Shown piece after piece: positions 14,080 through 31,536 of a DNA stretch of 64,000 nt. Source of the DNA: Pseudomonadota bacterium (GTDB taxonomy: Bacteria; Desulfobacterota; Binatia; UBA9968); NCBI GenBank assembly GCA_021324155.1, contig JAJPJQ010000007.1, forward strand, positions 1 to 64,000, written 5' to 3'. Position 1 is the stretch's first letter; each line of letters starts with the position of its first letter. The position numbers and the translations under genes are program-made. The notes under the pieces were generated by a model. It saw only the letters and a program-made list of their open reading frames with translations, had not been told where the DNA came from and made no database searches.

Positions 14080-14552
14080 GCGGACTCCTGCGGCAGCTTG
14101 ACGATGCTAAGCCAAAAATCCTCGATCGACTGGACGACGCGCATGAATTGCTCGAGATCGACCGGTTTCGTGATGTAGCAGTTGGCGTGCAGGTTGTAGG
14201 CTCGCAGGATATCGCGCTCCGCCGCGGAGGTCGTCAGAACGACGACGGGTATCGTCTTCAAATTCGCGTCTCTTTTGATCTCCTCGAGGACCTCCCTACC
14301 GTCTTTTTTCGGCAAGTTGAGATCGAGCAGAATGAGGTCCGGCCGCCTCGCCTGAGCATATTTGCCGGCGCGGCGGAGGTACGCGATCGCCTCCACTCCG
14401 TCCTCCACGACGCTGATCTCGTTGAGGATTTTACCTTCCTTAAGGGCCTCCATCGTCAGGCGGACGTCGCCGGGATTGTCCTCGACCAGCAGTATCTTAG
14501 CCTTGCTGAACTCCATTCCGATTGCCGCCCCATTGCTTGTCGCCGCATTCAT
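14076..14552 (-). CDS. Single-domain response regulator (Rcp1-like)
   Basis: A stand-alone receiver of 158 residues with the acidic pair in 'LLVEDNPGD', the phospho-acceptor in '[13 protein letters not shown]', Thr/Ser in 'VVLTTSAAE' and the Lys in 'YITKPVDL'. There is no output domain. The '-NPGD-VRL-' pattern and the long beta-alpha-4 loop are those of regulators paired with phytochrome-like kinases (Rcp1 type). It lies between two kinases of that H-box type. An AAAGGAG site precedes the ATG at 14552. Confidence 0.92.
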
Positions 14553-14574
14553 GTCGGAAACTCCTTTCGCCTTT

Positions 14575-17268
14575 TCAAGCCGGAAGTGTGAAATGAAAGC
14601 TCGTCCCCTCGCCCGGCTTGGAATCGACCCAAATTTTGCCTCCGTGTCGCTCGACGATTTTTTTGCATATCGCCAGGCCTATGCCGGTGCCGGGATATTC
14701 TTCCCTGCCGTGAAGCCGCTGGAACATGACGAAGACGCGGTCCGCGTGTTCTGGGTCGAAACCGATGCCGTTATCGGCAACCGTGAAGACCCATTCCGCG
14801 CCCTTGCTTTCGGCCGAAATGCGCACAGCCGGCGCACGATGGTTACGAAACTTGATCGCGTTCGCGATTAGATTCTGAAACAGCTGCCCGAGCTGCGTCG
14901 CATCGGCCATGACAGTCGGTAAAGCGCCACGGGAGATTTGGGCGCCGCTGCCTTCGATGGCGTTCTGGAGCGTCACGAGCGTGTCGTCGAGAACTTTTTC
15001 GCAATTTGTGGGTTCCAAGGCTTTGCCTTGCGTGCCCACGCGCGAATAGGACAACAGTGCGTTGATGAGCGCCTGCATGCGCGTCGCGCCGTCAACCGCG
15101 AAACCGATGAATTCGTCGGCGTCGGCGTCGAGCTTTCCCTTGTACCGCCGCGAAATCAGCTGCATGTAGCTGGAGACCATGCGCAGCGGTTCCTGTAGAT
15201 CGTGTGAGGCGATGTAAGCGAAGTGCTGCAGATCTGCGTTCGAGCGCGCCAGTTCCTCGGCGTTTTTCGAAAGCTGTCGGAACAACCGCGCATTTTCGAT
15301 TGCGACGGTGACGACGTTGCCGATCGCCTGCACCAGCTCGACCTCGTGCGGATCGAATGGCGCCAAACGGTCGGTTGAGACGTTCATGATTCCGATCGTG
15401 GCGCCGTGGACCTTGAGCGGCACCCACACAAAGGCGCGTCCGCCTTGAAGGCGAACCTCCTCGCGAATTCGCGGATCTTCGGCGTCATTGATGACGAGCG
15501 GCTCGCCGGACGCGAATACGTGCTCGCTCTTGCTCCCGGGCTGGACGTCATTGGTCAGCGACTCCAGATAGCGCCCGTCGATGCCGCGATGCGCCGCCAA
15601 CGCGAGGGAACCGGTCAATGGATCCTGCAGACGGATGTAAGCCTTCTCGCGCCCTGTGGCCGCCAGCACCTTGTCGAGCGCGATGTTGAGCGCTTCCTCG
15701 AAGTTGAGGGTCTGACTCGTTGCCATGGCGATCGCGTTGAGGGCTTCCTGCTCGCGCGCGTGGCGCTCTGCTTCTTGCATGAGCCGGGTTTTCTGTATCG
15801 CGATTCCCATTTGATGGCCGATCGACTCCAGCAATTGCACTTCGTCGACGCGGAATTTGCGTGGAGTGCGGCTCGCCACCTCGATAACTCCGAGCGTTTC
15901 CGTCGCCGTAATGATCGGCACGATAACGGCGGAGCGCGCGCCTTGCCGCTTGAATGACTCGAGCCCTTTCGTGTCCGCGATATCGTCGAGGACGACGCTC
16001 TTTCCCGAAGCGATGCGGCGCATCAGATCGAGCCGACCTCCTTCGCGGACAGCGGCGGACTGCCTACCGAGCCGATCGGCGTCGTCATAGCCGCGGCAAG
16101 CGCATAGTTGCATGCTTCCGTCGTTGGCCAGCAGTCGGAGATTGCCCAAATCGAGCGCAAGAGACGAGAGGCTTCGATCCAGAATATCGTCCAGAATGGC
16201 GTTGAAGTCGTTGGAGCCAAAGATCATCTGGCCGATGTCGTGCAGCGCCGTGAGCTGGCGATAGCGCTCCTGCAGCTCTTCTTGCGCGCGCTTGCGGTTT
16301 GTCACATCGGTGAACGCAATGACCGCGCCCGAGAAGCGCCCCTGCTCGATAATTGGATTGCTCACGTAGTCGACGACGAAGCTGGTGCCGTCGCGCCGGT
16401 GAAAGATTTCGTCGGACGATACGCACGTGCTGGCTCGCTTCATCGCCTGGAGAATCGGCGAGTTGCTCGCGAAATAGCGCTTGCCTTCGGCGTCCGAGTG
16501 TCCGAGGACATCGCCGAGAGGACGGCCGACCATCTCTTCGCCCTTAATACCCAGCATGCGTTGCGCGGCGGGATTGGCAAAGGTGAATTTGCCGTCGTGA
16601 TCGATGCCGCAAATGCCGTCGCCGGCAACGTCGAGAATGAGTTTGGTTCGGGCGAATGCGGCCTCGTTAAAACGCCAGGCGATGACGCTGCCGACCGCTG
16701 CCCAGAGAACGAAAAAGGCATGAATGCCGGCCCATTTCCACGGCGCGGCGATCGCATCGGCGTGATTGTAGACCTCACCGGGCGCGATGGCGCCGACCAA
16801 TCCGTGGTGCAGCGCGACGTAGCCGATGGCGATGAGATACGGCGCCCAGTCCTGGTAAAGCGCGAGGAAGACCACCATCACGAAAAAATGAAAATGGAGC
16901 TCGATATAGCCGCCGGACAGGTGTACCAGAATAGCCGACGCGCTCATCAGCGCGAGGCCGACGACGGTTGCCTTGAACGTGCGGCCGCGGCGTGCAAGCG
17001 AGAGCAAGGCAAAAAACGCGACGACGGCGGCCTCCGTGATCGTATGATTCGTCGTGCCGTCCTGAAAAAACGCGCTCCATTCGAGACGCAGCGGATAGCC
17101 CAATACCGGGCCGATTAGCGCGATGACGATCGCATGGAACCACGCGAGCCCCAAGAGAAAATGGTGCCGGCGTCTCCATATATCCTCGGGCAGCGTTCCG
17201 CCGCGCGGGAGCATGTCCCAAAAGCTCGCACGCGCGTCCATTAATGAAGTCGAAGCTTTAAACATCAT
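14575..17268 (-). CDS. Membrane PAS-GAF-GAF histidine kinase
   Basis: About 897 residues. The N-terminal ~200 residues contain roughly six hydrophobic segments (an integral-membrane sensor with '[14 protein letters not shown]'). A PAS domain follows ('[23 protein letters not shown]', '[10 protein letters not shown]' as PAC), then two GAF domains (~345-500 and ~515-680), a HisKA with the phytochrome-type H-box '[14 protein letters not shown]' (His ~688) and an HATPase_c ending in '[18 protein letters not shown]'. The ATG at 17268 overlaps the end of the preceding regulator; a GTG at 17301 is an alternative start. It probably phosphorylates one of the adjacent single-domain regulators. Confidence 0.88.
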
Positions 17269-17761
17269 GTTCAACCGCTCGCTTCCGTCGTGGCTGTTCA
17301 CTGCCTCGCATCACGCCATCAGCCACGGACGGCAATGCGACCCTCGTGAGCCAGAATTCCTCGATCGAATGAACTACCCTGATAAAGGTTTCGAGATCGA
17401 CGGGTTTGCTGATGTAGCAGTTGGCGTGGAGCTCGTAGCTCCGCCGGACGTCTTTTTCGGCGCATGAGGTGCTGAGAACGACGACGGGGGTGCGCCGCAG
17501 ATTGTTATCGCGCTTCAAGTCGGCAAGGACCTCGAGGCCGCTCTTCTTCGGCAGATTCAAATCGAGAAGGATCATGTCCGGCTTGACCGCTCCCGTGAAT
17601 TTCCCTTGGTGCCGGAGAAAAGCCAGCGCCTCGACGCCGTCGCTGACGACGCTCAGACGGCTTGCAAGCCGCGCCTCTTTGAAGGCTTCTCGCGTTAGTC
17701 GCACGTCCCCTGGGTTGTCCTCGACCAGGAGAATTTCCACGGGTCTGTCAGCCTGTGACAT
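17258..17761 (-). CDS. Single-domain response regulator (Rcp1-like)
   Basis: A receiver-only protein of ~167 residues with '[17 protein letters not shown]', the phospho-acceptor in '[13 protein letters not shown]', 'VVLSTSCAEKD' and 'YISKPVDL'. It is closely similar to the regulator at 14076-14552, so the two arose by duplication together with their kinases. An upstream ATG at 17776 overlaps the stop of the previous kinase, but AAGGAG lies 6 bases before the ATG at 17761, so that start is chosen. Its C-terminal codons overlap the next kinase's start. Confidence 0.92.
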   Translation of the reverse strand: MSQADRPVEILLVEDNPGDVRLTREAFKEARLASRLSVVSDGVEALAFLRHQGKFTGAVKPDMILLDLNLPKKSGLEVLADLKRDNNLRRTPVVVLSTSCAEKDVRRSYELHANCYISKPVDLETFIRVVHSIEEFWLTRVALPSVADGVMRGSEQPRRKRAVEHDV

Positions 17762-17772
17762 TGAATGCTCCT

Positions 17773-19821
17773 TCATTTGCTCGCCGGAATCGCGAAATAA
17801 AACGTCGCGCCTTTCCCCGGCTGCCCTTCCGCCCAGATGCGGCCGTTGTGCCGCTCGACGATTTTCTTACAGATCGCAAGTCCAATGCCGGTGCCGGTAT
17901 AACGTTCTTTGGCGTGGAGTCGCTGAAAAATGACGAAGATGCGGTCCGCGAACTCGGGCTCGAAGCCGATGCCGTTATCGCGAAACGAGAATATCCATTC
18001 CCCGCCTTCCCGCCGCGCGGACACCCGCACCTTGGGCGCGGCATGATTGCGAAACTTGACGGCATTGCCGATGAGATTTTGAAAGAGTTGTACGAGTTGG
18101 CGGCGATCGCCGGTTATCGTCGGAAGCGGCTCGCTGACGACTTCGGCGCCGGCTTCCATAATCGCTGCGTGTAGGTTGGCGGCCGCTTCGGCGAAAATCT
18201 GGCCGCAGTCGACCGCCGCGAAGTGATCTTCATTCGCGACTCGCGAGTATTCCAATAGGTCTTGAATGAGTCCCTGCATGCGCTTGACGCCCGCGACCGC
18301 ATAACCGATGAAGTCATCGGCGTCGGCGTCCAGGCGGCCTTTATAGCGGCGCGCAAGCAGTTGCGTGTAGCTTGCGACCATGCGAAGCGGTTCCTGCAGG
18401 TCGTGGGACGATACGTAAGCGAACTGCTCCAGCTCGGCGTTCGACCGCGCAAGCTCCAGAGTCTGCTTTTGCAGCGCGGCGTTGGCGTCCTCGACGTCGC
18501 GTTTCGCGGCGGCGGTTTCCTGGTAGAGCTGCGCGTTGTAAATCGACGACGCGGCCTGCGCCGCCAGCGCGCTGAGAAATTCGACTTCGTCGTCCGTGAA
18601 GCGATGCTCGACTTTGGTAAAGAACGTAATTACGCCGAGCGGACGGCGTTGCGCGATCAGCGGCACGCGCAGATAAGACACAAGGCCCTGGTTGCGGAGA
18701 AAATTGGATGATAGCGAGCGAGGGTCGGTCTGCGCGTTCAATACCATCAACGGCTTATTCACCTCGGCGAGCAGCCGATCGAGACGGTTGTGACTGCCAC
18801 CGGCCGTCTCGGCTTTCCATTTCTGCTCGTCGAGATTGCGGCAGGCGACGGGCTCGAGCATTCCGCTTTGACGGTTGACGAGGCGAATGGTGGTCGCGGC
18901 GATAAATGGCACCAGCTTGTCGGATTTCTCCAGCAGCAGGTCCAGCACGGCGCGGAGATCGAGGGTCGACGTGCTTGCCAGGTTGATTTCGTGCAGCGCC
19001 GCGAGTCGCGCTTCCGCGGCGGCTCTCTCGACTATCCGTTGTTCGAGCTCGGCCGAGGTCCGCCGGATTCTGCCCATCACGAGGCCGAGACCGCCTATTC
19101 CGAGGATCCCCATTGACGCCAAGAAGATGAGCGTGTCCTTCAACCCCGCCTTCGTCTGCGCGGCGACGCCGTCCAGACTCTGAACGATCTCCTGTACTCC
19201 GCGAATATCGCCGACCTTCCAATCGGTCTTGGGACTTTCCGGATGGCTGTTGTGACATGCGACGCAGCCGGCCTTCATGGCAACGGCGGTGGCATAGCGG
19301 AGAACGGGGCGGCCTCCGAGTTGTTCAAAGCGATAAAACGGTTTGTCCGGCTGCCGCCGCAGCTGGACCAGCGCTTCGCGCTCGAAATCGTCGCGCGGGC
19401 CGCCTTCTTTCCGAAACGCGAAAGGGTAGTCACTGTACAGCCGGATCTCCATGCCGGCGTTGTTTGCGGCAATGTGCCTGCCGAATTCAATCGTGAATGT
19501 CGCGGGAATGGGAATGGCGCCGGCTGTGGCCGCGTAATTGTGCGTCACCTCGACGCCGCGCGGCCTCACACGCTCTACAACCTCGGAGTTGTAGAACGTG
19601 CGCAGCTCCGTGATGGATTGAGAATACATGGAAGTGGCCTGCAGCGCGCCCGTTTCGACGAGACCAGAGGCAAGATGCGAGAAATGCCAAAAAGCGAGCA
19701 CCGTGGCGAGGACGAAGATAACCGTCAGGGCCGGAACCGTCCTGTCATAAACGTAGTATCGGACGACCGCAAAAACTTTTCGCATCGTTCGACCAAGCTT
19801 TTCGCCAAAAGCGTTGCTCAT
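17773..19821 (-). CDS. DUF3365 (haem-binding)-GAF histidine kinase
   Basis: About 682 residues. A membrane helix (~20-45) leads into a periplasmic DUF3365 (Tll0287-like) domain with 'YNSEVVERV' and the haem c attachment motif 'CVACH' (~189). A second helix ('LASMGILGIGGLGLVMG') is followed by a GAF domain (~265-415), HisKA with '[11 protein letters not shown]' (His ~472) and HATPase_c ('[16 protein letters not shown]'). DUF3365 proteins bind c-type haem, so redox or gas sensing is plausible. The frame extends upstream to 19896, but that would overlap the previous kinase; the ATG at 19821 leaves 25 bases between genes. Confidence 0.87.
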   Translation of the reverse strand: MSNAFGEKLGRTMRKVFAVVRYYVYDRTVPALTVIFVLATVLAFWHFSHLASGLVETGALQATSMYSQSITELRTFYNSEVVERVRPRGVEVTHNYAATAGAIPIPATFTIEFGRHIAANNAGMEIRLYSDYPFAFRKEGGPRDDFEREALVQLRRQPDKPFYRFEQLGGRPVLRYATAVAMKAGCVACHNSHPESPKTDWKVGDIRGVQEIVQSLDGVAAQTKAGLKDTLIFLASMGILGIGGLGLVMGRIRRTSAELEQRIVERAAAEARLAALHEINLASTSTLDLRAVLDLLLEKSDKLVPFIAATTIRLVNRQSGMLEPVACRNLDEQKWKAETAGGSHNRLDRLLAEVNKPLMVLNAQTDPRSLSSNFLRNQGLVSYLRVPLIAQRRPLGVITFFTKVEHRFTDDEVEFLSALAAQAASSIYNAQLYQETAAAKRDVEDANAALQKQTLELARSNAELEQFAYVSSHDLQEPLRMVASYTQLLARRYKGRLDADADDFIGYAVAGVKRMQGLIQDLLEYSRVANEDHFAAVDCGQIFAEAAANLHAAIMEAGAEVVSEPLPTITGDRRQLVQLFQNLIGNAVKFRNHAAPKVRVSARREGGEWIFSFRDNGIGFEPEFADRIFVIFQRLHAKERYTGTGIGLAICKKIVERHNGRIWAEGQPGKGATFYFAIPASK

Positions 19822-19846
19822 CGCATCGGTGCTTTCATGGGCCGCA

Positions 19847-22735
19847 TCACAAAAACGCCGGCGCGCGGTTCTCGGCGCCGTATTTCCCCTGCCCACCCGG
19901 AATTTTCAGCGTAAACGTCGAGCCTACGCCCTGCGCGCTGTCGACATGGATCTGACCGCCGAGCAGCTCGGTGAACTTCTTCACGATAAAAAGGCCGAGG
20001 CCTACCCCGCCCGAAGAGTGCCTCCGAGAGGAACGAACCTGCGAGAACATTTCGAAGATGTGCGGCAGCTCTTCCGGCGGAATGCCGATGCCCGTATCGG
20101 CCACCTTGAATTCCACCATACGCTCGTCGCGGAGATGGCGCGCCGAAAGAACAATACCGCCGGAATTCGTATATTTAACCGCATTGCCGAGCAGGTTCGT
20201 CAAAATGTGCCGGAGCCTTTCCGGATCCGTCGAAACCTCGGGAAGATCCGGCGGAATCTTCCACTCGACGGCAATCGCCTTCTGCGTCGGGACGGAATAA
20301 ATCGACTTCAGTTCCTCGAGAAAGTGCGTCACCCCGACCTGGACGAATTCGGGCTTAACCGCGCCAGCCTCGATTTTCGTCGCCTCCAGCAATTGATCGA
20401 TCATGCTCAGAAGCTCCCGCGAGTTGACGCTGATTTTCTCCAGCACCTTCGTCTGTTCGGGATTCGATTCGCCGCACATGCCGCCTTCCATCAATGCCGC
20501 GTAGCCCATGATGATGTTGACCGGCGTGCGCAGCTCGTGCGAGACGAAACCCAGGAATTCGTTCTTTACCTTGCTCGCCTGAGTGAGCTCGTCGGCTTGC
20601 TTGCGGATCTGATCGAGAAGGCGCGCGTTTTCCAGCGCGATCCCAGCGCCGTTGCCCATTTGCTGTAGAAGCTCGATCTCCTCGGTCTGGAACTGCCGCG
20701 GCGGGTAGCTGAGCGCGCGGAGAACGCCGATGACGTCGCCGCGCCGCGAAAAGAGCGGCACGGCGAGATATCCCTGAATGCCGAGTCGTCGCGCGGTCTG
20801 GCCAATGGGCGGATCCTTGACGCGACTGATGTCGGGAAGGACGAGAGGCCGCCGGTTTTCGACGACCCAGGTTGAACCGCCGCCTTTACCGGTCGCGCTG
20901 CCGCGCATCTCCTCCGCGTCGATGCCTGAAATGCCCATGATGCGAAAGCCATCGATAACGCGGACGTCCGCGATGTCGACTTTGAAGAATTCGCGAACCT
21001 TGTCGGTGAGCTTCTTAAGCAGGTTATCGAGATCCTGCGAAGCGAAGTCTTGGCTGAGCTCCTTGAGCAGCGCCTGAATAGCCTCTTTGCGCCTGAGATC
21101 GCTATTGACGCGCTCGAGATCTAGCGTCTGTTTTTTCGCTCGGGCATGCAGCTGCGAGTTGTAGATAGCGACCGCCGCTTCGCCGCTGAGCACCGAGAAG
21201 AACGCGATGTCGTCGGCGCTGAACCGACGCTGCTGGCGGCTAAGGAAAGAAATCACCCCAAGGACCTCGCCGCGGACGATGAGCGGCACGCCGAGATACG
21301 AGGCAAATCCTTGTCGGACGTAAAATTCGGGATCGACCATTCGCGTATCGGTTTTGAGGTCGCCGATAGTAACGGGAGTCCGGCTTTCGATCACGGTCCT
21401 TACGACGGGAGATGTGTCCTTTCCGTCGCGCTGCTTCCACGCGGTTTCGTCCAAGTTCCAGCAATTCTTTCGCTCCCACTCACCGGTATCGGGATTCTTG
21501 AGCCAAAGGAGCGCCGCCGCATCGGGCCACAGTTCGCCGATTTTTTCGAGGAACACCTTAAGCACCACCTCGACATCCAGTGTCGACGTGATGGCCACGT
21601 TGATCTCGCGCAGCGCCGTCGTCTCATCGAGATGCCGTCGCAAGTCAGCTTGCGCCCGTCGCGTCTCGGCGTCGCGCTGCTCGATGCCGTCGGCCATGCG
21701 GTTGAACGACGACGCGAGCTGCCGCATCTCGCCGTTGGTGGTCGGCAGGCGTACGCGCGCGCGCAGATCTCCTTGGCCCAACTGCTCGGACGCATCGATC
21801 AAACGTTTCACCTGACGAACGATCAGCCAATGGCCAGCGCACCAGGCGCCGCCCAGCGCCAGTAGAGCGGCAAGCGCGAGCCAGTCGAGGCTGTTCTTCA
21901 CACGATCCGCCGACGCTAGCGCGGAATCTTTTGCAAGCCCGACGATTACCGTGGCTGCGTTGTCGTTCAGCCGCGTGAAGCCGTACAGCCGCCTGACTCC
22001 ATCAACGCCTTCGGCATCCGCCGTGCCCTGGCCTCTTTGACGGAAGATCGCGCTGAGGAGAGGCCCGTCCGGCATTTTTCGACCAATCCAGGTTCCCGGC
22101 TCCGGATAGCGAACGAAGATAACGCCATTATTGTCGATGAGCGTTACGGTCGTGCCCTCGGGTAGGCGCGTTTGCGCTGCGATGCGGCTGAGCCAGGTCA
22201 AATCGATGCCGGCAAAAACCACACCCGCCATTTTTCCGCGATTATCGCGCAACGGGTATCCAACGTTGATGGTGGCACGTCCGGTGACGCGGCCGAGCTG
22301 GTAATCCCCGAGCGCCATGTCTTGCCGCTGGATCGTGCGCCGGAAATAACTGCGATCGGCTATATTGACGCGGTCTGTCAGCGGAACCGCGCTACAGATA
22401 AGCCAACCGTCAACGTCGGCGACCCCTAGGTTCGTGTAATACGGATATTTGCCGTGGACCTGTTGAAGAAATGTGCTGCAAGCGGTCGCATCTGTCGCTC
22501 GGACGACGGGAACCTCTGCGACGGCTGTTAGCAGCTGGCGCGTGCCCGCGATCAACACCTCCTGATTCGCCGAAACCAACCGAGCCAGTCTCTGCGCGCT
22601 CTGTTGAGCCTCCAGAGAGCTCGAGCGGCGCTGCTCCTCCGCCGCATAGAAGATCAACGCCAGCGCCGGAGTGACTGCCAACAGCACCAGTAGTGCCAGC
22701 CGCAAGCGAAGATCCGAGAACACGAGCTTCTTCAT
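19847..22735 (-). CDS. Cache-HAMP-GAF-GAF histidine kinase
   Basis: About 962 residues. After a first membrane helix (~13-35) comes an extracytoplasmic Cache-type sensor (~40-285) with '[17 protein letters not shown]' and '[21 protein letters not shown]'. This family binds small organic ligands such as amino or carboxylic acids. A second helix, a HAMP domain, two GAF domains (~390-545, ~555-720), HisKA with 'SHELRTPVN' (His ~733) and HATPase_c follow. The frame is open to a TTG at 22756, but the ATG at 22735 directly before the 'KKLVF' signal-anchor is preferred. Third kinase in transcription order. Confidence 0.88.
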
Positions 22736-22818
22736 ACGTACACCGGGATTGCCCAATCGTTTAATTCAATCCGCCTGTCGCCCGTATCGACTCCTGCGCC
22801 GCGTAAAACCGTCTCATC

Positions 22819-25800
22819 CTAAACCTGCCCGCACGGAAGCTTCACCGTGAACGTGGAGCCGTGCCCCGGCGTACTGTCAATCTCGATCGTTCCGCCGAGA
22901 AGCCGAGCGAAGCTTCGGGCGATGTAGAGTCCCAAACCTACACCGCCGTAACGCCGCGTCTCGGAACCGTCCGCTTGGCGGAATTTATCGAAGACGAGTG
23001 CGAGTTTTTCTTCCGAAATGCCGATTCCGGTATCGGAGACCTGGAATTCCATCCAGTCGCCGACAACTCGCGCCGTCAGCACAACGCTTCCGTTCTCCGT
23101 AAATTTGATGCCGTTGTCCAAGAGCGTCTGCAGAATCCAGCGAATCTTGTCCGGGTCGGATCTTACGACCGGTAGATCGGCCCCGTAATTCCAATCGATC
23201 TTAATCGGCTTCGACGGCGGCGTGGCATAGGCCCGCTTGATCTCGTCCAAAAGTCCGCCGAGAGCGAAAGCGATCTCATCTACGCGGACTTCGTTCGCTT
23301 CGATGCTGGTCGCGTAAAGAATGCTGGTAATCATTGAGAGAAGTTCGTGCGTCCTGGTGACTAGCTTGTCGAGCGCTTTATCTTGTTCGATGTTCGTCGG
23401 ACCGAGCATCCCCTCGCGGATGAGGCTTGCGTAGCCGATCACGATGTTCAGCGGTGTACGGAGTTCGTGCGACATGACACTTAGGAATTCGTCCTTGACT
23501 TTGTTGGCGCGCTGCAGCTCGCCGAGCTTCTGTTTCAATTCGTCGTAAAGCTTGCTGTTCTCGATGGCGATCGCCAGCTGGTCGGTGAGCGCTTCGATCA
23601 GCTTGGTCTCATCGGCCGAAAGCCGGCGCGGCTGGATCGCCGTGAAAGCCAGAGTCCCATGGTTTTGCCGCTTACCACGGATCGGAAAGACGGCGAAAAA
23701 CCGGTGGCCAAGCTCGCGCGACCGGCCGCTTCGGCTAACTGTTCGATAGGCTTCATCCGTGGCGATGTCTTCGAAGACCACCGCCTTGCCGGTCGCGGCC
23801 ACTCTGCCGATGATACCTTCGCCCACCCGAAAGGAACGAAGCGAAACCGCCGCTTCATGCTCCGCGTCGAAATAACCGCCGAGGACGAGCTCATCACGCG
23901 CCGGATCGAAGATGTGGATTTGAGTCGTGCGGAAATGAAAAATTTCGGTAATCTTTTCGATGACCGATCGAAGGACGCGTTCGAGATCCAGAGATTGGCT
24001 CGCCGCTGCCGCGGCAGCATGCAGCGCCGCAAGCATGCGATTGCTCGCCTCCAGCTGCGCTTCTCGAACGCGCGCTTCTTCGTACAGCCGCGAATTTTGC
24101 AGTGCGATCGCCGCCTGGCCGGCGAGAGTCTCGAGGAAGTTGATCTCTTCGGGTTCGAAATCGTGCTCTTCCTTCGTATAGAAACCGAGCACGCCGATGA
24201 TCTCGTTGGCTACGATCAGCGGCACACCGACATACGAGACCAGGTCGTGCTTGCGACAAAACTCGACGTCGGTCGCGCGTTCGTCGCTGCGCACATCGTG
24301 GATGACGAGCGGTGATTTGGTCGTAACGACGAGATTTGAGCTGCCGCGTTTCGCATCCTCTTTTTTCCACTCGTCTTCGTCAAGATTTCGGCAGGCGACG
24401 GGCTCCAAGAAGCCGCTTCGTCGATTGATCAGACGGATCGTCGTCGCGCTTGAATAGGGTAGCGTGACGTCGATTTTCTCGAGCAGCTTTTTGAGAAGGC
24501 TCTCGAGATCGAGCGTAGAAGAAATCGCGTGATCGATCTCCCGGAGCGCTTGCAAGCGCGTAAGGCGGCGGGCGGTCTCCTGAAACAGCCTCGTGTTTTC
24601 CAGCACGACGCCGATGACGTTGCCGATCGCCTGAAGCAATTGAACTTCGCGCTCGAGAAACGGCACCGGCTGCCGCGATGCGACGTTGAGTACGCCCACC
24701 GCCCTGCCAGCGGCCTTGATCGGAATGCGTGCGACGACCTTCTGGCCATCGCGACTGGACTCGTCACCGACGTCCGTTTCATTGTTGACGATCAGAGGTT
24801 CTCCGCTCGCTATCACGCTCTTCGTTTTCCCGGCTTTGCCGCCTCTTCGGCGTTGAGACTGCAAAAACTCCACATAGCGCTGCGAAACGCCTTTATGCAC
24901 CGCCAAGCTCAACCGGCCGGTTGCGGGGTCCTTGAGCAGGATATAGCCGCGGTCCCGGCCGGTGGCCTCGAGCACTTTGTCCAATGCGATTCGGAGAAGG
25001 TCCTCTTGCTCGTGCGATTGGCTTACCGCCATGGCGATTGCCGAGATGGTCGCCTGTTCCTGCGCGTGCTGCACGGTTTCCTGAAAGAGCCGGGTCTTTT
25101 GCAAACCGATGCCGAGGAGATTGGCGATGCCTTTCAGCAGCGGCAGCTCGCGACTGTCGAACTTGCGCGGCGTCCGGCTGCCGAGTTGCAAGACACCGCC
25201 GTTTTCACCCTCGACGATAATCGGAACGAAGACCGCCGACTTGACCCCCTCATGATGCAGGATTCTCATGCCGTCGGCATGATCGACGTCTTCGATGACG
25301 AGCCAGTCTTTCGTGCTAAGAGAGCGCATTTGGTGCTTGGACTCGGCGATTTCGTACCTACGCGCAATGCCCTTGCCGTCGCGATAACCGAAATGAGCGA
25401 TGGCTTCGCGCCATTTGCCGTCGGTCGTCATGACAGTGCCGAAGTCGAACGACCCCAATTCGACAGTTTTGTTCAGAATGCGCTGGGCCATCGTCTTGAG
25501 ATCGAGACCTCCGAGAACAACTTGGGCGATCTCGTGGAGCACCTGCGTCTCTCGGTACGCGGCGCGGGTTTCCTCGAAGAGGCGTGCATTTTCCAAGGCG
25601 ATGGCGATACCGTTTGCGAGCTGTTGCAGCAGATCGATTTCTGTATCGCTGAATTTCCGCGGTTCGAATGACAGCGCGCGAAGAATGCCGATGACTTCGG
25701 CGCTTCGGCCGAACAGCGGAGCGGCGGCGTAGCCGCGGATGCCGAGACGGCTCAGCGCCTCGCCAGACGGAATGGATTGATCGATCACCGCGTCGGCGAT

Positions 25801-27186
25801 GACGAGCGGACGTCGGTGCTCGACGATCCATGCCGTTCGCCCGCGAATACCGCCCAATTGATAAATGTTGCCGGCATCGGTGCCGGAGGCGCCGACGCTT
25901 CGACGCGAGCCCTGCTCTTCCAGCAGTCGTATGTCGGAAATGTCGACTTTAAAAAATTCGCGGACCTTATCGGTGATTTTCTGGAACAATTCGCCGAGAT
26001 CGAGTGTCGTAATATCCTGGCTCAGCTCCTTGAGCAGCTTTTGGACCTCCTGCCCGCGCAAGCATTCGAGATAATGCCGGCTATTTTGCACGGCGACGCC
26101 GATAACATTTCCAATGCTCTCCAAAAATTCCACTTCACGCTGCTCGAAAGGAATCGGCCGTTTGGCTGAAATCGTGAGCACACCGACAACTTCATTTCCC
26201 GCGATGATCGGAATCGAAGCCAAAGAGCAAACATTGGGCAAAAGCGACGCTTGGATTTGTGCGGCTGTAGTATCGTTCAAGACATATGATTTTCCCGTTG
26301 CAAAAACGATTTCGGCCGTTCGGCCGCTTGTCTGGCGGATTTCACTGACCTCGGAAGAGGAAAAACCTCGGTGAGCTGCAAGCGCGACCTCGCCGGTTAG
26401 ATCGTCTTTGATCCGGATAGTACCGCGCTCGCGGCCGGTAACCTCGAGAATCTTTTCGAGCGATTCTCCGAGAACATTGCGGACATCGAGCGAGCGGCTC
26501 GCTGCAATGGTCACCGCGCTGAGCGCCGCCTGCTCGCGAGCGGTTCGCTGCATTTCATCAAAAAGCCGACCCTTCTGAATAGCGATGCCGATCTGCGCGC
26601 CCATTGCCTCCAGCAAGCGCACTTTCTCGGGCGGCACTTTCCGGGGAGTTCTGCTGCCTACCGCCATAATTCCCAACACCTCTTCGGTAGTACCGATGGG
26701 AACAAGGATGGCCAAGCGAACTCCTTCAAGCTTAAATGTGCGAAGCCCGTCGCCGGCGATGACGTCTTCAATGATGACACTCTTTTTGGAGGCCATGACC
26801 CCGGGGGCATAAAATCCGTCGGAATCCTCGCCGCCATGGGTCAAATGCCGCCGCGTATTGCGCTCGTCGCGGTAGCCGAGGCAAGAGCTGTGTTTGAGTC
26901 TTCCGGCAGCATCGAACAGACGAACGTTTCCAATGTCAAAGGCGATTGTTGCGAGAATAGTTTTCAGCGAGGTGGAGAGCGTTGTCTGAATGTCCGGAGA
27001 AGCAAGAATCGTTTGGCTAAGCTCGTGAAGGATTTGGAGCTCGCCGTAGCGGTCTTTGATGTCGTGAACGAGCGACAGCACAGGCGACTGCGTCGCTCTC
27101 GCGTCGCCGAAACCATCGGAATGCTTATCTTCGGAGCCTTGAAAGGAAACTTTCAAGGCCGCGACGATGCGGTCGGAAAGGCCCAT
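22819..27186 (-). CDS. Cytosolic histidine kinase with seven tandem GAF domains
   Basis: A 1455-residue protein with no membrane segment. Seven GAF domains follow each other (starting near residues 47, 215, 375, 545, 705, 875 and 1045), each opening with a similar helix such as 'ILHELSQ', 'LLKELSQDI' or 'ALREIDHAI'. The C-terminus has HisKA with 'SHELRTPLN' (His ~1239) and HATPase_c ('DTGIGISEEK', 'GGVGLGLYI'). Several GAFs are more alike to GAFs of the neighbouring kinases than to each other, pointing to domain shuffling within this cluster. GAF domains bind small molecules or mediate dimerisation; none shows a chromophore cysteine I can point to. It starts 19 bases after the HTH gene. Confidence 0.92.
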   Translation of the reverse strand: MGLSDRIVAALKVSFQGSEDKHSDGFGDARATQSPVLSLVHDIKDRYGELQILHELSQTILASPDIQTTLSTSLKTILATIAFDIGNVRLFDAAGRLKHSSCLGYRDERNTRRHLTHGGEDSDGFYAPGVMASKKSVIIEDVIAGDGLRTFKLEGVRLAILVPIGTTEEVLGIMAVGSRTPRKVPPEKVRLLEAMGAQIGIAIQKGRLFDEMQRTAREQAALSAVTIAASRSLDVRNVLGESLEKILEVTGRERGTIRIKDDLTGEVALAAHRGFSSSEVSEIRQTSGRTAEIVFATGKSYVLNDTTAAQIQASLLPNVCSLASIPIIAGNEVVGVLTISAKRPIPFEQREVEFLESIGNVIGVAVQNSRHYLECLRGQEVQKLLKELSQDITTLDLGELFQKITDKVREFFKVDISDIRLLEEQGSRRSVGASGTDAGNIYQLGGIRGRTAWIVEHRRPLVIADAVIDQSIPSGEALSRLGIRGYAAAPLFGRSAEVIGILRALSFEPRKFSDTEIDLLQQLANGIAIALENARLFEETRAAYRETQVLHEIAQVVLGGLDLKTMAQRILNKTVELGSFDFGTVMTTDGKWREAIAHFGYRDGKGIARRYEIAESKHQMRSLSTKDWLVIEDVDHADGMRILHHEGVKSAVFVPIIVEGENGGVLQLGSRTPRKFDSRELPLLKGIANLLGIGLQKTRLFQETVQHAQEQATISAIAMAVSQSHEQEDLLRIALDKVLEATGRDRGYILLKDPATGRLSLAVHKGVSQRYVEFLQSQRRRGGKAGKTKSVIASGEPLIVNNETDVGDESSRDGQKVVARIPIKAAGRAVGVLNVASRQPVPFLEREVQLLQAIGNVIGVVLENTRLFQETARRLTRLQALREIDHAISSTLDLESLLKKLLEKIDVTLPYSSATTIRLINRRSGFLEPVACRNLDEDEWKKEDAKRGSSNLVVTTKSPLVIHDVRSDERATDVEFCRKHDLVSYVGVPLIVANEIIGVLGFYTKEEHDFEPEEINFLETLAGQAAIALQNSRLYEEARVREAQLEASNRMLAALHAAAAAASQSLDLERVLRSVIEKITEIFHFRTTQIHIFDPARDELVLGGYFDAEHEAAVSLRSFRVGEGIIGRVAATGKAVVFEDIATDEAYRTVSRSGRSRELGHRFFAVFPIRGKRQNHGTLAFTAIQPRRLSADETKLIEALTDQLAIAIENSKLYDELKQKLGELQRANKVKDEFLSVMSHELRTPLNIVIGYASLIREGMLGPTNIEQDKALDKLVTRTHELLSMITSILYATSIEANEVRVDEIAFALGGLLDEIKRAYATPPSKPIKIDWNYGADLPVVRSDPDKIRWILQTLLDNGIKFTENGSVVLTARVVGDWMEFQVSDTGIGISEEKLALVFDKFRQADGSETRRYGGVGLGLYIARSFARLLGGTIEIDSTPGHGSTFTVKLPCGQV

Positions 27187-27205: not shown

Positions 27206-27409
27206 TTAGTCGAAGGCGGCGAGAACAGTTTCCTTTTCTTCCGCCCAGCGCTTCAACTGGCTTTCCCGAAGCCGCCATTGGCCCCCGACTTTAAGCGCGG
27301 GAACCTCCTTCTTTTGAATCATTCGCAGGATCGTTCTTTTAGATACCTGAAGGATAATCGCCGCTTCCGCCAAGGTTAAAAATCTGAGTTCGGTTTGCTC
27401 ACCGGTCAT
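27206..27409 (-). CDS. Helix-turn-helix (excisionase/MerR-like) DNA-binding protein
   Basis: A 67-residue protein made of one winged HTH of the HTH_17/excisionase type: 'LTLAEAAIILQVSKRTILRMIQ' followed by the wing 'VPALKVGGQWRL'. An upstream ATG at 27424 is possible, but GGAGGTG sits 8 bases before the ATG at 27409, so the shorter start is taken. It is the first gene of the kinase run (19 bases to the seven-GAF kinase) and may act as its transcriptional regulator. This HTH type is also common in phage excisionases, but no integrase is nearby. Confidence 0.8.
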   Translation of the reverse strand: MTGEQTELRFLTLAEAAIILQVSKRTILRMIQKKEVPALKVGGQWRLRESQLKRWAEEKETVLAAFD

Positions 27410-27661
27410 ATCGCGCACCTCCATAACTCAAGGGAGCCGAGCAAGGCATATGCCAGAAGCGGTCAAGGTGCTAAATGGCTGTTTTGCATGTAGCTTTGAG
27501 TGCCAATAGGTAATCTATTCGCACCGGCGGGCGACGCGGGCGTTCGCGAAATGACAAAAGTTGCTATTATCGTGCCCCGGAATACAGTGCAGCGCCGCTT
27601 AGTTGACAGGATAGGCGAAAGATGCCAAGACGGGGATGCTGCCAGCCGCGCCTGGCAGAAT

Positions 27662-28654
27662 ATGACGAACAAGATCGCGCCAATCGCCGCTTTCGTCTTT
27701 TTACTTCTATTGTCGGGGATATCACTGGCACAGACGCCGACGCTCGTCCCAATGGGCTATACGGGCAGCGGCATCAGCACCGACTTGAGGCGGGTTATAG
27801 AGAGAACGAAGCTATGGACGAAGCGCGGCCTGGACGTCAGGCCGGTCTATTTCAACAGCGGTACGACGCTTACGCAGGCGATGCTCGGCGGACATATCAT
27901 TATTTCGGATTCTGATGTCCCGGCACAGATAAATTTAAAAGTCGCCGGGGTGATGGACGTGAGCGTCGTCGCGGTGACGATCAACCGGCTGGAGCATTTC
28001 TTCGTCGTACGATCGCAGATCAAATCGGCCGAAGACCTCAAGGGCAAAAAAGTCGCGATCAGCCGCTTCGGGTCCGCCTCCGACGTGACGACCCGCATGG
28101 TGGTGCGCTTCTGGAGGCTCGACCCGGACAAAGATCTAGCGTTCATCCAGTCCGGCAATACGCCTACGCGCGTCGCCGCTCTGGTGACAGGTCAGGTGGA
28201 TTCCGCTCTCATCAGCCCCGACTCGCTCCATAAAGTTCTGGCGACCGGCTGCTGCCGCGTCTTCGCCGACCTATCGGAGATTCCGCTCGATTATGCGCGT
28301 TTCGGCGTCATTATGCCGACGGCCATCATCAAGAACCAGCGTGACACAGCGCGCAAGCTTCTCGAGGCATATGTCGAGGGCATCCATGTCTTTAAGACCC
28401 GGCCCGAGCTGGCGATCGAAATTCTGCAAAAGGAAGACGGCATTGCCGACCCGCAGACCGCCAGGTGGATTTACGACCGGATCGCCAAGAGCCTGCGGGA
28501 ATTTCCGATACCGGAGCCCAAAGGTATCCAGGCGGCGATCGATTCGATCGGCACGCCGAAATCGAAATCCGCTCAGGCCAAAGACTTCATCGACTCGAGC
28601 TTGCTCGAAGAGATTCAAAAGAGCGGCTACGTCGCGAAGCTCTACGGCAAGTAA
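27662..28654 (+). CDS. ABC-type substrate-binding protein (NMT1/THI5-SsuA-like)
   Basis: A 330-residue secreted protein: signal peptide ~1-24 ('FVFLLLLSGISLA'), then a periplasmic binding fold with 'GLDVRPVYFNSGTTLTQAML', 'IKSAEDLKGKKVAISRFGSASD' and the C-terminal 'AKDFIDSSLLEEIQKSG'. The 'SAEDLKGKKVAI' signature marks the NMT1/THI5-like group, which binds sulfonates, pyrimidine precursors, aromatic acids and others. An open frame extends further upstream, but the ATG at 27662 directly precedes the signal peptide. A paralogue follows 46 bases later; no permease or ATPase gene is adjacent. Confidence 0.88.
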   Translation: MTNKIAPIAAFVFLLLLSGISLAQTPTLVPMGYTGSGISTDLRRVIERTKLWTKRGLDVRPVYFNSGTTLTQAMLGGHIIISDSDVPAQINLKVAGVMDVSVVAVTINRLEHFFVVRSQIKSAEDLKGKKVAISRFGSASDVTTRMVVRFWRLDPDKDLAFIQSGNTPTRVAALVTGQVDSALISPDSLHKVLATGCCRVFADLSEIPLDYARFGVIMPTAIIKNQRDTARKLLEAYVEGIHVFKTRPELAIEILQKEDGIADPQTARWIYDRIAKSLREFPIPEPKGIQAAIDSIGTPKSKSAQAKDFIDSSLLEEIQKSGYVAKLYGK

Positions 28655-28700
28655 GAATCTTCTTCCGGCATCTTGTCGTCCGTCTCGAGATGAGCACGGC

Positions 28701-29693
28701 ATGTCAGTGCGCGCGGCGCTGTTAGCGATCGCGGTTCTTCTCTCGGCGTGGACCACTCCGGCGCGCGCCCAAGCTCCCACAATCGTCTCGCTCGGCTACA
28801 GCGGCAGCGGCATCAGTACCGATCTCCTCGGGGTGATAGAAAAAAGCAAGCTCTGGACGCGCCGCGGGCTCGACGTCAGGCCGGTTTATTTCAACAGCGG
28901 CACGACGCTGACGCAGGCGATGCTCGGCGGCTACATCGTGATCTCCGACTCCGATGTGCCGGCGCAGCTCAATCTCAAGGTCGCCGGGGTGATGGATGTG
29001 AGCATCATCGGCGTGACGGTGAACCGCCTCGAGCATTTCTTCGTGGCTCGCGCTCCCATCAAGACCGTGGAAGAGCTCAAAGGCAAGAAAGTCGCCATCA
29101 GCCGCTTCGGCTCGGCGTCCGACTTGACGACGCGCATGGTGCTACGCTACTGGAAGCTCGATCCGGAAAAAGATCTTGCAATTATTCAATCCGGCAACAC
29201 ACCGACGCGTATCGCCGCGCTGGTTGCGGGCCAAGTGGACGCCGCGCTCGTAAGCCCGGACTCGATCCACAGAATCCTCGCCTCGAATTGCTGCCGCGTG
29301 CTCGCCGACTTATCCGAGATACCGCTCGATTACGCGCGCTTCGGCCTCGTCGCACCGACGGCTTTCATCAAAAAGCAGCGCGACGTGCTGCGCAAGTATC
29401 TCGAGGGCTACGTCGAAGGCATTTACCTCTTTAAAACGCGCCCCGATCTCGCAAAGGAAGTCTTGCAACGAATAGAGGGTGTCACGGACGCGCAGACGCT
29501 GCAGTGGATATACGAGCGCAACGCGCGCAGCCTGCGTGAAAACCCCGCTCCCGACATGAAGGGTATTCAGAATGCTCTCGAATCCATCGGCACGCCGAAG
29601 GCGCGCGCCGCTCAGGCGAAGGACTTCATCGACGCAAGCCTGATGGAGGAGATACAGAAGAGCGGCTTTATCGCCAAGCTCTACGGAAGGTGA
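28701..29693 (+). CDS. ABC-type substrate-binding protein, tandem paralogue
   Basis: A 330-residue paralogue of the preceding gene with near-identical architecture: signal peptide ending 'PARA', the same 'VYFNSGTTLTQAMLGG' pocket segment, 'GKKVAISRFGSASDLTT' and 'AKDFIDASLMEEIQKSGF'. A longer open frame begins inside the first paralogue, but the ATG at 28701 precedes the signal peptide. Strong conservation in the hinge and pocket with divergence at the surface suggests an old duplication with related ligands. It converges on the alcohol dehydrogenase, with 6 bases between stops. Confidence 0.88.
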   Translation: MSVRAALLAIAVLLSAWTTPARAQAPTIVSLGYSGSGISTDLLGVIEKSKLWTRRGLDVRPVYFNSGTTLTQAMLGGYIVISDSDVPAQLNLKVAGVMDVSIIGVTVNRLEHFFVARAPIKTVEELKGKKVAISRFGSASDLTTRMVLRYWKLDPEKDLAIIQSGNTPTRIAALVAGQVDAALVSPDSIHRILASNCCRVLADLSEIPLDYARFGLVAPTAFIKKQRDVLRKYLEGYVEGIYLFKTRPDLAKEVLQRIEGVTDAQTLQWIYERNARSLRENPAPDMKGIQNALESIGTPKARAAQAKDFIDASLMEEIQKSGFIAKLYGR

Positions 29694-29699
29694 TACGGG

Positions 29700-30725
29700 C
29701 TAGATCGCCGGATCGATGATGACTTTGATCGAATCGCCGGCGTTCGCCACCAGCTCGAAACCGCGCCCGGCATCTGCGATGCCGAGGCGATGCGTGATCA
29801 TATCGCTGACAACCACGCGCCGACTTTGCAAGAGATCGATCGCTTCTTTGATATCGTCGGGGCTCGCCGCGTACGAAGTGACGATGCGCACCTCGTCGCG
29901 CCAGAGATCGTAAAGCGGGATGGGGACCTCGACACCCGCGGCCGTCGGCGCAAAGAAAAGAACTGTGCCGCCACGCTCGACCGAGCGTAGGGCTTGCGCG
30001 ATCGCGGCGTTGGCGCCCGTGCAGACAATCACCAGATCGGCCAAACGGCCGTCGTTCATTTTTTGAAATTTATCGATAACGTCGCTGCCCGCCGTCAGCG
30101 CGGCGTCGGCGCCCATTTCGCGCGCGGCTCTCAAGCGAAAATCGTTGACGTCGGTCGCGACGATCAGCGCCGCCCCGCGGGCGCGTGCAAGCTTGATATG
30201 CATGAGGCCGGAGATGCCGCTGCCGACGACAAGTACGCTCTGTCCGGCAACGATTCCGGCGAAACGCTGCGCCCGCACAATACATCCCAACGGCTCGATA
30301 AAGGAGCCGTCATCGAAAGATATCTCCTGCGGCAGGCGGAAGGTACCTAGCTGGACGTTGATCCTCGGAACGCGGAGATACTCGGCGAAGCCGCCGGGGT
30401 CAAAATGCGTGCTGCGGAGCGTATCACAGACCGAATGGTGACCGGCGCGGCAGTAGCGACACTGCATACACGGAACGTGATGCGAGACGAAGACGCGGTC
30501 CCCGATGCGGTACTCCTTTATGCCGTCGCCGACCGCGGCGACTTCGCCGGCGATTTCGTGTCCGAGAACGAGCGGCGCCTTCTTGATGCGGTACCACTCC
30601 ATGACGTCGGTGCCGCAGATGCCGCTCGCTTTGACGCGCACGAGAAGCTCGCCCGACCCGATCACCGGCATGGGCATCTCTTCGAGCCGGACATCGCGGT
30701 TGTTATAGTACATCGCGACGCGCAT
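29700..30725 (-). CDS. Zinc-dependent alcohol dehydrogenase (MDR family)
   Basis: A 341-residue medium-chain dehydrogenase with the GroES-like catalytic Zn site ('SGICGTDVMEW', 'LGHEIAGEV'), the structural Zn loop of four cysteines ('VPCMQCRYCRAGHHSVCD') and a Rossmann nucleotide site ('VVGSGISGLMHIKLA'). It oxidises a secondary alcohol or polyol with NAD(P). Substrate is not evident, but sorbitol/threonine-type dehydrogenases look most similar. It lies 10 bases downstream of the LsrF-like aldolase gene, so the two probably act in one pathway. Confidence 0.9.
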   Translation of the reverse strand: MRVAMYYNNRDVRLEEMPMPVIGSGELLVRVKASGICGTDVMEWYRIKKAPLVLGHEIAGEVAAVGDGIKEYRIGDRVFVSHHVPCMQCRYCRAGHHSVCDTLRSTHFDPGGFAEYLRVPRINVQLGTFRLPQEISFDDGSFIEPLGCIVRAQRFAGIVAGQSVLVVGSGISGLMHIKLARARGAALIVATDVNDFRLRAAREMGADAALTAGSDVIDKFQKMNDGRLADLVIVCTGANAAIAQALRSVERGGTVLFFAPTAAGVEVPIPLYDLWRDEVRIVTSYAASPDDIKEAIDLLQSRRVVVSDMITHRLGIADAGRGFELVANAGDSIKVIIDPAI

Positions 30726-30735
30726 CTACAATCGC

Positions 30736-31536
30736 CTAGCCTGCTTTCCGCGCTTTTCCGGATTTCGAGCCCTGATAAATGTCATACGCCTGCTTGACCG
30801 TCGCCTTGTCGTGGACAATTGCTCGCACGGCGCGGATCATGCCGGTCGGGCTGTCCGACTGAAAAATATTTCTGCCCATATCCACGCCGACGGCGCCGCC
30901 GCGCACCGCGTTGAACGTGAGCTCGAGCGCCTCGAGCTCGGGAGTCTTTTTGCCGCCGGCGATAATCACGGGAATCGGACAACTCTCCACGAGCTTGTCG
31001 AAATCGTCACAGTGATAGGTTTTCACAATGTGCGCGCCGAGCTCGGCGGCGATGCGGCAGGCAAGACCCAAATAGCGCACGTCGCGCGCCATGTCTTTCC
31101 CTACCGCCGTGACCGCGAGCACCGGGATGCCGTGGCGCTCGCCCTCGTCGACGAGTTTGGTGAGGCTTACGAGCGTCTGCTTTTCGAACTCCGAGCCGAC
31201 GAAGATGGAGAGCGCCATCGCCGACACGTTCAGGCGAATTGCGTCCTCGATCGATACCGTGATGTCTTCGTTGGAAAGTTCCTTCAAGATGCTCGTGCCG
31301 CCGGAGACGCGCAGCACGACCGGCACATTCGCCGCCGGATCGACGGACGTTCGGAGCACGCCGCGCGTCAGCATGATCGAATCGGCGTGCGGCAGCAGCG
31401 GCGCGATCGTCTTACGCGGCTCTTCGAGCCCGCTCGTGGGCCCGAGGAAATAGCCGTGATCGACCGCCAGCATGACGGCGCGGCCGTCTTCCGGTTTGAT
31501 GATCCTGGAGAGCCTGTTTTTCATCCCCCAATCCAT
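30736..31536 (-). CDS. LsrF/DeoC-family aldolase or thiolase
   Basis: A 266-residue class I aldolase-type TIM barrel that closely resembles LsrF: 'MDWGMKNRLSRI' start, 'VMLAVDHGYF.GPT', 'TRGVLR', 'VGKDMARD', 'KTYHCDDF' with the Schiff-base lysine, 'VIIAGGKKTPE' and 'GVDMGRNIFQS'. LsrF transfers an acetyl group from phosphorylated AI-2-derived dione to CoA. No lsrK, lsrB or lsr transporter gene accompanies it, so another keto-sugar phosphate or archaeal-type DKFP/aldolase role is equally possible. It is co-directional and tightly spaced with the Zn-dehydrogenase. Confidence 0.82.
   Translation of the reverse strand: MDWGMKNRLSRIIKPEDGRAVMLAVDHGYFLGPTSGLEEPRKTIAPLLPHADSIMLTRGVLRTSVDPAANVPVVLRVSGGTSILKELSNEDITVSIEDAIRLNVSAMALSIFVGSEFEKQTLVSLTKLVDEGERHGIPVLAVTAVGKDMARDVRYLGLACRIAAELGAHIVKTYHCDDFDKLVESCPIPVIIAGGKKTPELEALELTFNAVRGGAVGVDMGRNIFQSDSPTGMIRAVRAIVHDKATVKQAYDIYQGSKSGKARKAG

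What the first reader, a model, noticed from the sequence alone, without database searches (positions are those of the whole stretch)
22819..27186. Histidine kinase with seven consecutive GAF domains
1455 residues with seven GAF repeats and no membrane part is far beyond the usual one to three GAFs. Repeats resemble GAFs in the neighbouring kinases (for example 'LLKELSQD' in repeat 3 and in the Cache kinase's second GAF), which implies exchange of modules within the cluster.
Basis: seen in the sequence. Interest (0 to 1): 0.55.

Follow-up and report, generated by a model that had tools for sequence, protein, structure and literature searches.

The report
Seven-GAF soluble sensor histidine kinase
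A bacterium carries a large soluble signalling protein with seven small sensor domains of five ancestral types strung on evenly phased helical linkers ahead of a histidine kinase; its parts are known, but its family gives a clear picture of how such multi-sensor kinases are assembled.

Summary
On the minus strand, window 27186..22819 encodes an intact 1455-residue protein (M7) with seven GAF domains, HisKA and HATPase_c, and no hydrophobic stretch like a membrane helix. Seven is the most in this genome (next 3), but not a record: a relative has a nine-GAF kinase, another six, and cyanobacterial PtxD has seven.

A tree of 110 GAFs puts M7's seven into five classes, in the order A-B-C-A-B-D-E; one clade for all seven is rejected (p 1.7e-37). 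The classes recur in neighbouring kinases but also across other genera of the family, and M7's GAFs are often closest to those. So modules were shuffled, but anciently and family-wide; exchange inside this cluster is neither shown nor excluded.

Also found: GAF-GAF linkers follow the seven-residue rule of coiled coils (61 of 63 within one residue of 7n; GAF-to-His 30 of 33 at 7n+3), and junction types tend to keep their own length. A small excisionase-type HTH gene precedes M7; such genes precede GAF genes at 21 of 37 family sites. M7 most likely integrates several cytosolic signals through one helical rod. Ligands unknown. New member of a known kind.

The parts
22819..27186 (-). M7, soluble seven-GAF histidine kinase, 1455 aa
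26575..26997 (-). GAF1, class A (residues 64-204)
26086..26490 (-). GAF2, class B (residues 233-367)
25591..26004 (-). GAF3, class C (residues 395-532); nearest in window is Cache kinase GAF2, 53%
25099..25506 (-). GAF4, class A (residues 561-696)
24598..25014 (-). GAF5, class B (residues 725-863)
24097..24513 (-). GAF6, class D (residues 892-1030); AlphaFold2 model pLDDT 89
23560..23991 (-). GAF7, class E (residues 1066-1209)
23296..23496 (-). HisKA, H-box SHELRTP with predicted phosphoacceptor His1240
22831..23157 (-). HATPase_c (residues 1344-1452)
27206..27424 (-). small HTH_17 / excisionase-family DNA-binding protein, 19 bp before M7
   Evidence: conserved next to GAF genes
19847..22756 (-). 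dCache-HAMP-GAF(D)-GAF(C)-HisKA-HATPase kinase (CacheHK)
17773..19896 (-). Tll0287-like-GAF(D)-HisKA-HATPase kinase
17258..17776 (-). stand-alone receiver-domain response regulator
14575..17301 (-). PAS-GAF(A)-GAF(B)-HisKA-HATPase kinase (PasHK)
14076..14552 (-). stand-alone receiver-domain response regulator
12424..14079 (-). receiver-GAF(D)-HisKA-HATPase kinase (RRHK)
27500..29693 (+). two adjacent NMT1-like substrate-binding proteins, divergent from the HTH gene
   Evidence: positional counterpart in G004
29700..31536 (-). zinc alcohol dehydrogenase and DhnA/LsrF-type aldolase, syntenic with the HTH gene in other genera

Best explanation
M7 is a cytosolic multi-input sensor histidine kinase. 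Seven GAF domains of five ancestral classes (A-B-C-A-B-D-E) are strung on helical linkers whose lengths keep the seven-residue register of a parallel coiled coil. Ligand binding or redox change in any GAF is passed as a twist along this rod to the HisKA helices and sets the kinase/phosphatase balance. M7 then phosphorylates receiver domains, probably the stand-alone ones or the receiver of RRHK encoded downstream. It was assembled by shuffling GAF cassettes that circulate among the kinases of this bacterial family; the register rule is what makes cassettes exchangeable. Shown: domains, classes, the linker rule, a long inter-GAF helix in the A-B model, gene order. Inferred: dimeric rod, signal integration, phosphotransfer partners, and the HTH protein as the transcriptional arm. 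Unknown: ligands.
For: Seven GAFs + HisKA + HATPase_c, with H, N and G box motifs present and no membrane segment. Five GAF classes in a 110-domain tree and rejection of one clade for M7. GAF-GAF linkers: 44 of 63 are exact multiples of 7 and 61 of 63 lie within one residue; GAF-to-His 30 of 33 at 7n+3; GAF lengths and start-to-start distances of the same pairs show no such phase (R7 0.20 and 0.18 against 0.84 and 0.89). M7's own linkers are 28, 27, 28, 28, 28, 35, then 31 to the His. The A-B tandem model has one 46-residue helix joining the two GAFs and matches tandem GAF and GAF-PHY structures of PDE5, PDE6, PDE2A, Cph2 and CyaB2. PasHK and its close kinase relatives carry 2, 3, 3, 3 and 6 GAFs on one kinase clade. 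Receiver-only regulators lie in the same run. Seven-residue linker dependence, and its likely role for tandem sensor modules, is described in PMC6798134 (passages).
Against: No ligand or partner is identified; some GAFs may be structural only. Linker lengths of related proteins are not independent, most are simply 28 or 31, and periods 6 and 8 also score fairly high in the full set (R 0.68 and 0.73 against 0.83 for 7). The A-B model is monomeric, from six sequences, pLDDT 82, pTM 0.60. No full-length counterpart of M7 was found in the family genomes searched, so conservation of the whole array cannot be shown. The comparison loci were chosen by similarity to M7 or to its HTH gene, or as GAF/kinase genes of the same genome.
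Confidence: 0.7

Rival explanations
1. The seven GAFs arose by recent internal tandem duplication of one GAF or one A-B pair inside this gene.
For: A-B occurs twice (g1-g2, g4-g5). Holding g2 and g5 together is not rejected (p-AU 0.26). A nine-GAF kinase in G004 does look like this: all nine of its GAFs score best to one class, and the eight that entered the tree fall with one other GAF in a supported group.
Against: One clade for all seven is rejected. g1/g4 are 32% and g2/g5 38% identical, less than each is to GAFs of other genera. In the tree g5 pairs with PasHK GAF2 (93/64) and g2 with relatives (99/90).
Confidence: 0.12
2. GAF modules were exchanged among the five kinases of this cluster.
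For: Classes A, B, C and D are each shared between M7 and neighbours. g3 with Cache GAF2 costs only 0.02 log units (p 0.50). The GAF-GAF-kinase ends of M7 and the Cache kinase align over 1.8 kb at 58%.
Against: The same classes are found in other genera, often closer to M7; all 25 in-cluster DNA matches listed are 57-69% identical, without near-identical tracts.
Confidence: 0.25
3. The extra GAFs are mostly structural spacers or dimerisation rods; only one or two sense anything.
For: No cyclic-nucleotide NK motif at its place and no 'CH' bilin dipeptide in any of the seven, and the DosS haem-ligand position is His in only one, g4 (motifs recalled).
Against: Classes are conserved across genera as distinct domains, and the class D model resembles ligand-binding GAFs such as the cAMP-bound Lcd1 domain.
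Confidence: 0.3
4. M7 is an assembly artefact joining pieces of two kinases.
For: The genome is an assembly of 53 contigs; no full-length counterpart was found.
Against: The open frame is intact over 1455 codons, the repeats are too diverged at DNA level to mislead an assembler, and linker lengths keep phase through all junctions.
Confidence: 0.03

Closest known systems
PtxD (NpF2164), seven-GAF cyanobacteriochrome of Nostoc punctiforme
   Same: Seven GAF domains in one protein (passages of PMC5812497 and PMC6696110).
   Different: At least six of PtxD's GAFs bind bilin; M7 has no 'CH' dipeptide. PtxD's output is a chemotaxis-type module (recalled), M7's is HisKA-HATPase.
Nine-GAF histidine kinase of the same family (G004:C7, locus L088, 1851 aa)
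   Same: Long GAF array directly on a histidine kinase.
   Different: All nine GAFs score best to one class, as expected from tandem duplication; M7 mixes five classes.
Multi-PAS/GAF cytoplasmic histidine kinases, e.g. of archaea
   Same: Cytosolic kinases with several PAS/GAF inputs, and stand-alone receiver regulators (abstract and passages of PMC5847659).
   Different: Different lineage, and usually fewer GAFs (inference).
DosS/DevS GAF and CyaB2/PDE GAF tandems
   Same: Among the nearest solved GAF folds by sequence and structure.
   Different: Their ligand motifs are not kept: no NK of NKFDE at its place, haem His position kept in one of seven GAFs (motifs recalled).

Membership tests
HisKA-type sensor histidine kinase | HisKA phosphoacceptor helix with H-box | tested here: met
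   PF00512 E 9e-14 above cut-off; SHELRTP at 1239
HisKA-type sensor histidine kinase | HATPase_c domain with N and G boxes | tested here: met
   PF02518 E 1e-27; [20 protein letters not shown] present
HisKA-type sensor histidine kinase | autophosphorylation and transfer to a receiver | not testable with these tools
   needs biochemistry
GAF domain family | seven segments match GAF models | tested here: met
   seven stretches in each of three Pfam GAF models; class D GAF model matches solved GAFs
Cyanobacteriochrome / phytochrome | bilin-attaching Cys (CH dipeptide or DxCF; recalled) | tested here: not met
   neither motif occurs in the 1455 residues
Cyclic-nucleotide-binding GAF (PDE/CyaB2) | NKFDE motif (recalled) | tested here: not met
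   the two NK dipeptides of M7, at 572 and 1228, lie at the start of GAF4 and just before HisKA, not at the motif position
DosS-type haem GAF | His at the proximal position (His149, recalled) | tested here: inconclusive
   only GAF4 of seven has His there, and GAF1 (L) and PasHK GAF1 (R) of the same class do not
Coiled-coil-linked modular sensor | linker lengths in seven-residue phase | tested here: met
   61 of 63 GAF-GAF linkers within one residue of 7n; 30 of 33 GAF-His at 7n+3

The most novel reading that the evidence does not exclude
This bacterial family runs a cassette system for sensor kinases: a set of GAF classes with junction-specific heptad-phased linkers (A-B 28, D-E 35, D-C 41, D-F 42) is recombined into arrays of 1 to 9 sensors. 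M7 is a fusion of two arrays, [A-B-C] and [A-B-D-E-kinase], inserted between a dedicated HTH regulator and the kinase that normally follows it, giving a five-class integrator.
Probability: 0.35. Interest if true: 0.5.

Novelty: new member of a known kind. Interest (0 to 1): 0.33.

Why it matters
How one kinase reads many sensors is an open question. Here nature supplies a graded series in one bacterial family: kinases with 1, 2, 3, 6, 7 and 9 GAFs, some on closely related kinase domains, with linkers in countable register. That makes the rule 'modules may be swapped if the heptad phase is kept' directly testable.

Tried and rejected
Rejected: all seven GAFs as one internal amplification. Recent gene conversion inside the cluster (nothing above 69% DNA identity). 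Bilin or canonical cyclic-nucleotide binding (motifs recalled). Haem binding as a general property (one of seven positions).

Led nowhere: a full-length counterpart of M7. None among 25 family genomes at E 1e-100, own included (partial hits only, in 8 others); none beyond the family in 297 phylum genomes at 1e-120; in the class only family members matched residues 1-870 at 1e-45 (4 of 98 genomes, own included). Genome contigs gave two relatives, one with two GAFs (L021) and one matching only the kinase part (L022). AU tests started or queued and not finished: M7 g1+g4, window B, window D, the L088 GAFs. Alignment A2 was discarded because overlapping pieces were misaligned. The promoter and terminator scan was no better than shuffles. 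NCBIfam gives only sub-threshold names for M7 among the 25 shown. A literature search for GAF-GAF, linker, heptad and cyanobacteriochrome together found no paper; 'seven GAF' found three papers, two of them relevant.

Sampling limits: loci L083-L102 were chosen by similarity to M7, L063-L081 as GAF or kinase genes of the same genome, L133-L161 by similarity to the HTH gene. In one search GAF matches shorter than about 100 residues were dropped. In one search only GAF pairs with both ends well matched and linkers under 80, and GAF-His distances under 100, were counted (63 and 33). GAF classes come from HMMs built from the groups of the tree; weak assignments were counted with the rest.
Full report
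OBSERVATION. The named interval holds, on its minus strand, one intact open frame of 1455 codons (27186..22819). Pfam finds seven stretches for each of its three GAF models, HisKA and HATPase_c. The H, N and G box motifs are present and no stretch is hydrophobic enough for a membrane helix. I call the protein M7. In this 4.8 Mb genome GAF_2 matches 41 places, 39 over the cut-off, of which 13 lie in the five kinases of this cluster; the next richest gene has three. Among comparison loci from the same family are kinases with nine (G004, 1851 aa; one of the nine matches is short), six (G007, 1750 aa) and at least five GAFs (G008, open frame cut short). PtxD of Nostoc has seven (passages in PMC5812497 and PMC6696110). 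Seven is rare but not new.

GAF CLASSES. A maximum-likelihood tree of 110 GAFs (window, own genome, family loci, one named relative, L021) sorts M7's domains into five classes: A (g1, g4), B (g2, g5), C (g3), D (g6), E (g7). Support: B 94/92, C 100/98 starred, D 100/89 starred (23 rows), the eight-row set with E 99/92 starred; class A (20 rows) is 93/99 but open inside. The tool warned of few columns for so many rows. PasHK is A-B, the Cache kinase D-C, RRHK and the Tll0287-type kinase D. Holding M7's seven together costs 427 log units (p-AU 1.7e-37). But the classes span genera, and M7's g1 and g2 are closest to G007 rather than to PasHK. In-cluster pairings are not rejected: g3 with Cache GAF2 p 0.50 and the three window A domains p 0.16; g2 with g5 p 0.26. 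All 25 in-cluster DNA matches listed are 57-69% identical. Exchange is real but old, and its site cannot be told.

ASSEMBLY RULES. Of ten class B domains nine directly follow an A; seven of nine class C domains directly precede a kinase, and M7's C, followed by A, is an exception. This suggests, without proving it, that M7 joins an A-B-C array to an A-B-D-E-kinase; A-B-D-kinase (L092) and A-D-E-kinase (L099) exist in relatives. On one supported kinase clade (100/99) sit PasHK with two GAFs, L084, L085 and L086 with three, and L083 with six, together with the Tll0287-type kinase, which has one.

LINKERS. Between neighbouring GAFs 44 of 63 linkers are exact multiples of seven (28, 35, 42) and 61 of 63 lie within one residue of that. 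From the last GAF to the phosphoacceptor His, 30 of 33 are 7n+3 (24, 31, 38, 45, 73). GAF lengths and start-to-start distances of the same pairs show no such phase. Outside the commonest lengths 28-30, 25 linkers keep phase 7 (R 0.69; a uniform null reached it in 0 of 20,000 draws), though period 8 scores 0.65 there. Related proteins are not independent, so this is an indication rather than a p-value. Junctions keep their own length: A-B 28 (9 of 9), D-C 41 (4 of 4), D-E 35 (3 of 3), D-F 42 (4 of 5). Heptad dependence of kinase linkers, and its likely extension to tandem sensor modules, is already described (PMC6798134, passages).

STRUCTURE. The class D GAF (g6) models as a standard GAF (pLDDT 89), closest to the cAMP-bound Lcd1 GAF and GAFs of phosphoenolpyruvate-protein phosphotransferases. 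The g1-g2 tandem (pLDDT 82, pTM 0.60) shows one continuous 46-residue helix between domains and matches GAF-PHY and PDE tandem GAF structures. Known ligand motifs (recalled) are absent: no CH or DxCF bilin motif, no NK of NKFDE at its place, and a DosS-type His only in g4. Ligands are unknown.

NEIGHBOURHOOD. M7 follows, on the same strand, a small HTH_17 gene (excisionase type), and is followed by the Cache kinase, Tll0287-type kinase, receiver, PAS kinase, receiver, and receiver-GAF kinase. The HTH is the only DNA-binding protein I found in the run. Thirty-seven HTH relatives at E 1e-10 lie in 19 of 24 family genomes; 21 of the 37 are followed on the same strand by a GAF-bearing gene, 16 are not, three of those on contig ends with under 1.6 kb left. 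Two of the 21 are neighbouring HTH genes before one kinase. Upstream, aldolase (83-89% identical) and alcohol dehydrogenase (70-74%) are kept in three of 17 fetched regions (G004, G013, G002), with a 68-71% identical substrate-binding protein in G004. In G004 and G002 the GAF gene after the HTH is a Cache-HAMP-GAF kinase, and in G006 a collinear counterpart of the window's Cache kinase follows the HTH (48% over 965 aa). In G013 it is PasHK-like. M7 is thus an extra gene between the HTH and the Cache kinase here, by insertion or by loss elsewhere.

MECHANISM. Most likely M7 forms a parallel dimer with a long helical spine; each GAF pair biases the helix twist, and the sum sets HisKA activity and phosphotransfer to receiver proteins. 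Domains, phase and gene order are shown; dimerisation, integration and partners are inferred.

VERDICT. Real, intact, unusually long, but a new member of a known kind. Its value lies in the family series and the countable linker register.

Noticed in passing
window 27206-27424 (-); loci L162-L178: Small HTH_17/excisionase-type genes recur before GAF kinases. In 10 of 17 upstream regions they follow members of one protein family, identified in L168 as MoeA and a MoeA-PBP_like fusion, hinting at a molybdenum- or ligand-linked regulator.
   Followed up: partly
window 29700-31536 and 27500-29693: Aldolase (LsrF/DhnA type), zinc alcohol dehydrogenase and NMT1-like substrate-binding protein keep order and orientation with the HTH gene in G004, partly in G013 and G002. 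The substrate-binding gene is present twice in the window.
   Followed up: partly
window 14091-15256 and 17330-18457: Kinase domain plus following receiver gene appear as a diverged tandem duplicate (66% DNA identity over 1.17 kb) with different sensor parts in front.
   Followed up: no
L088 347-5899 (-), G004:C7: Histidine kinase of 1851 aa with nine GAFs, all scoring best to one class, an apparent tandem amplification.
   Followed up: partly
L069, G000:C45:77500-93203: Another dense group of histidine kinases near a contig end of the same genome, four of them in one tree clade.
   Followed up: no
L083-L086 and window 12424-14079: The receiver-GAF-kinase behind the PAS-type kinase carries a class A GAF in four relatives but class D in the window; its kinase domain belongs to another clade, so the gene may have been replaced.
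   Followed up: partly
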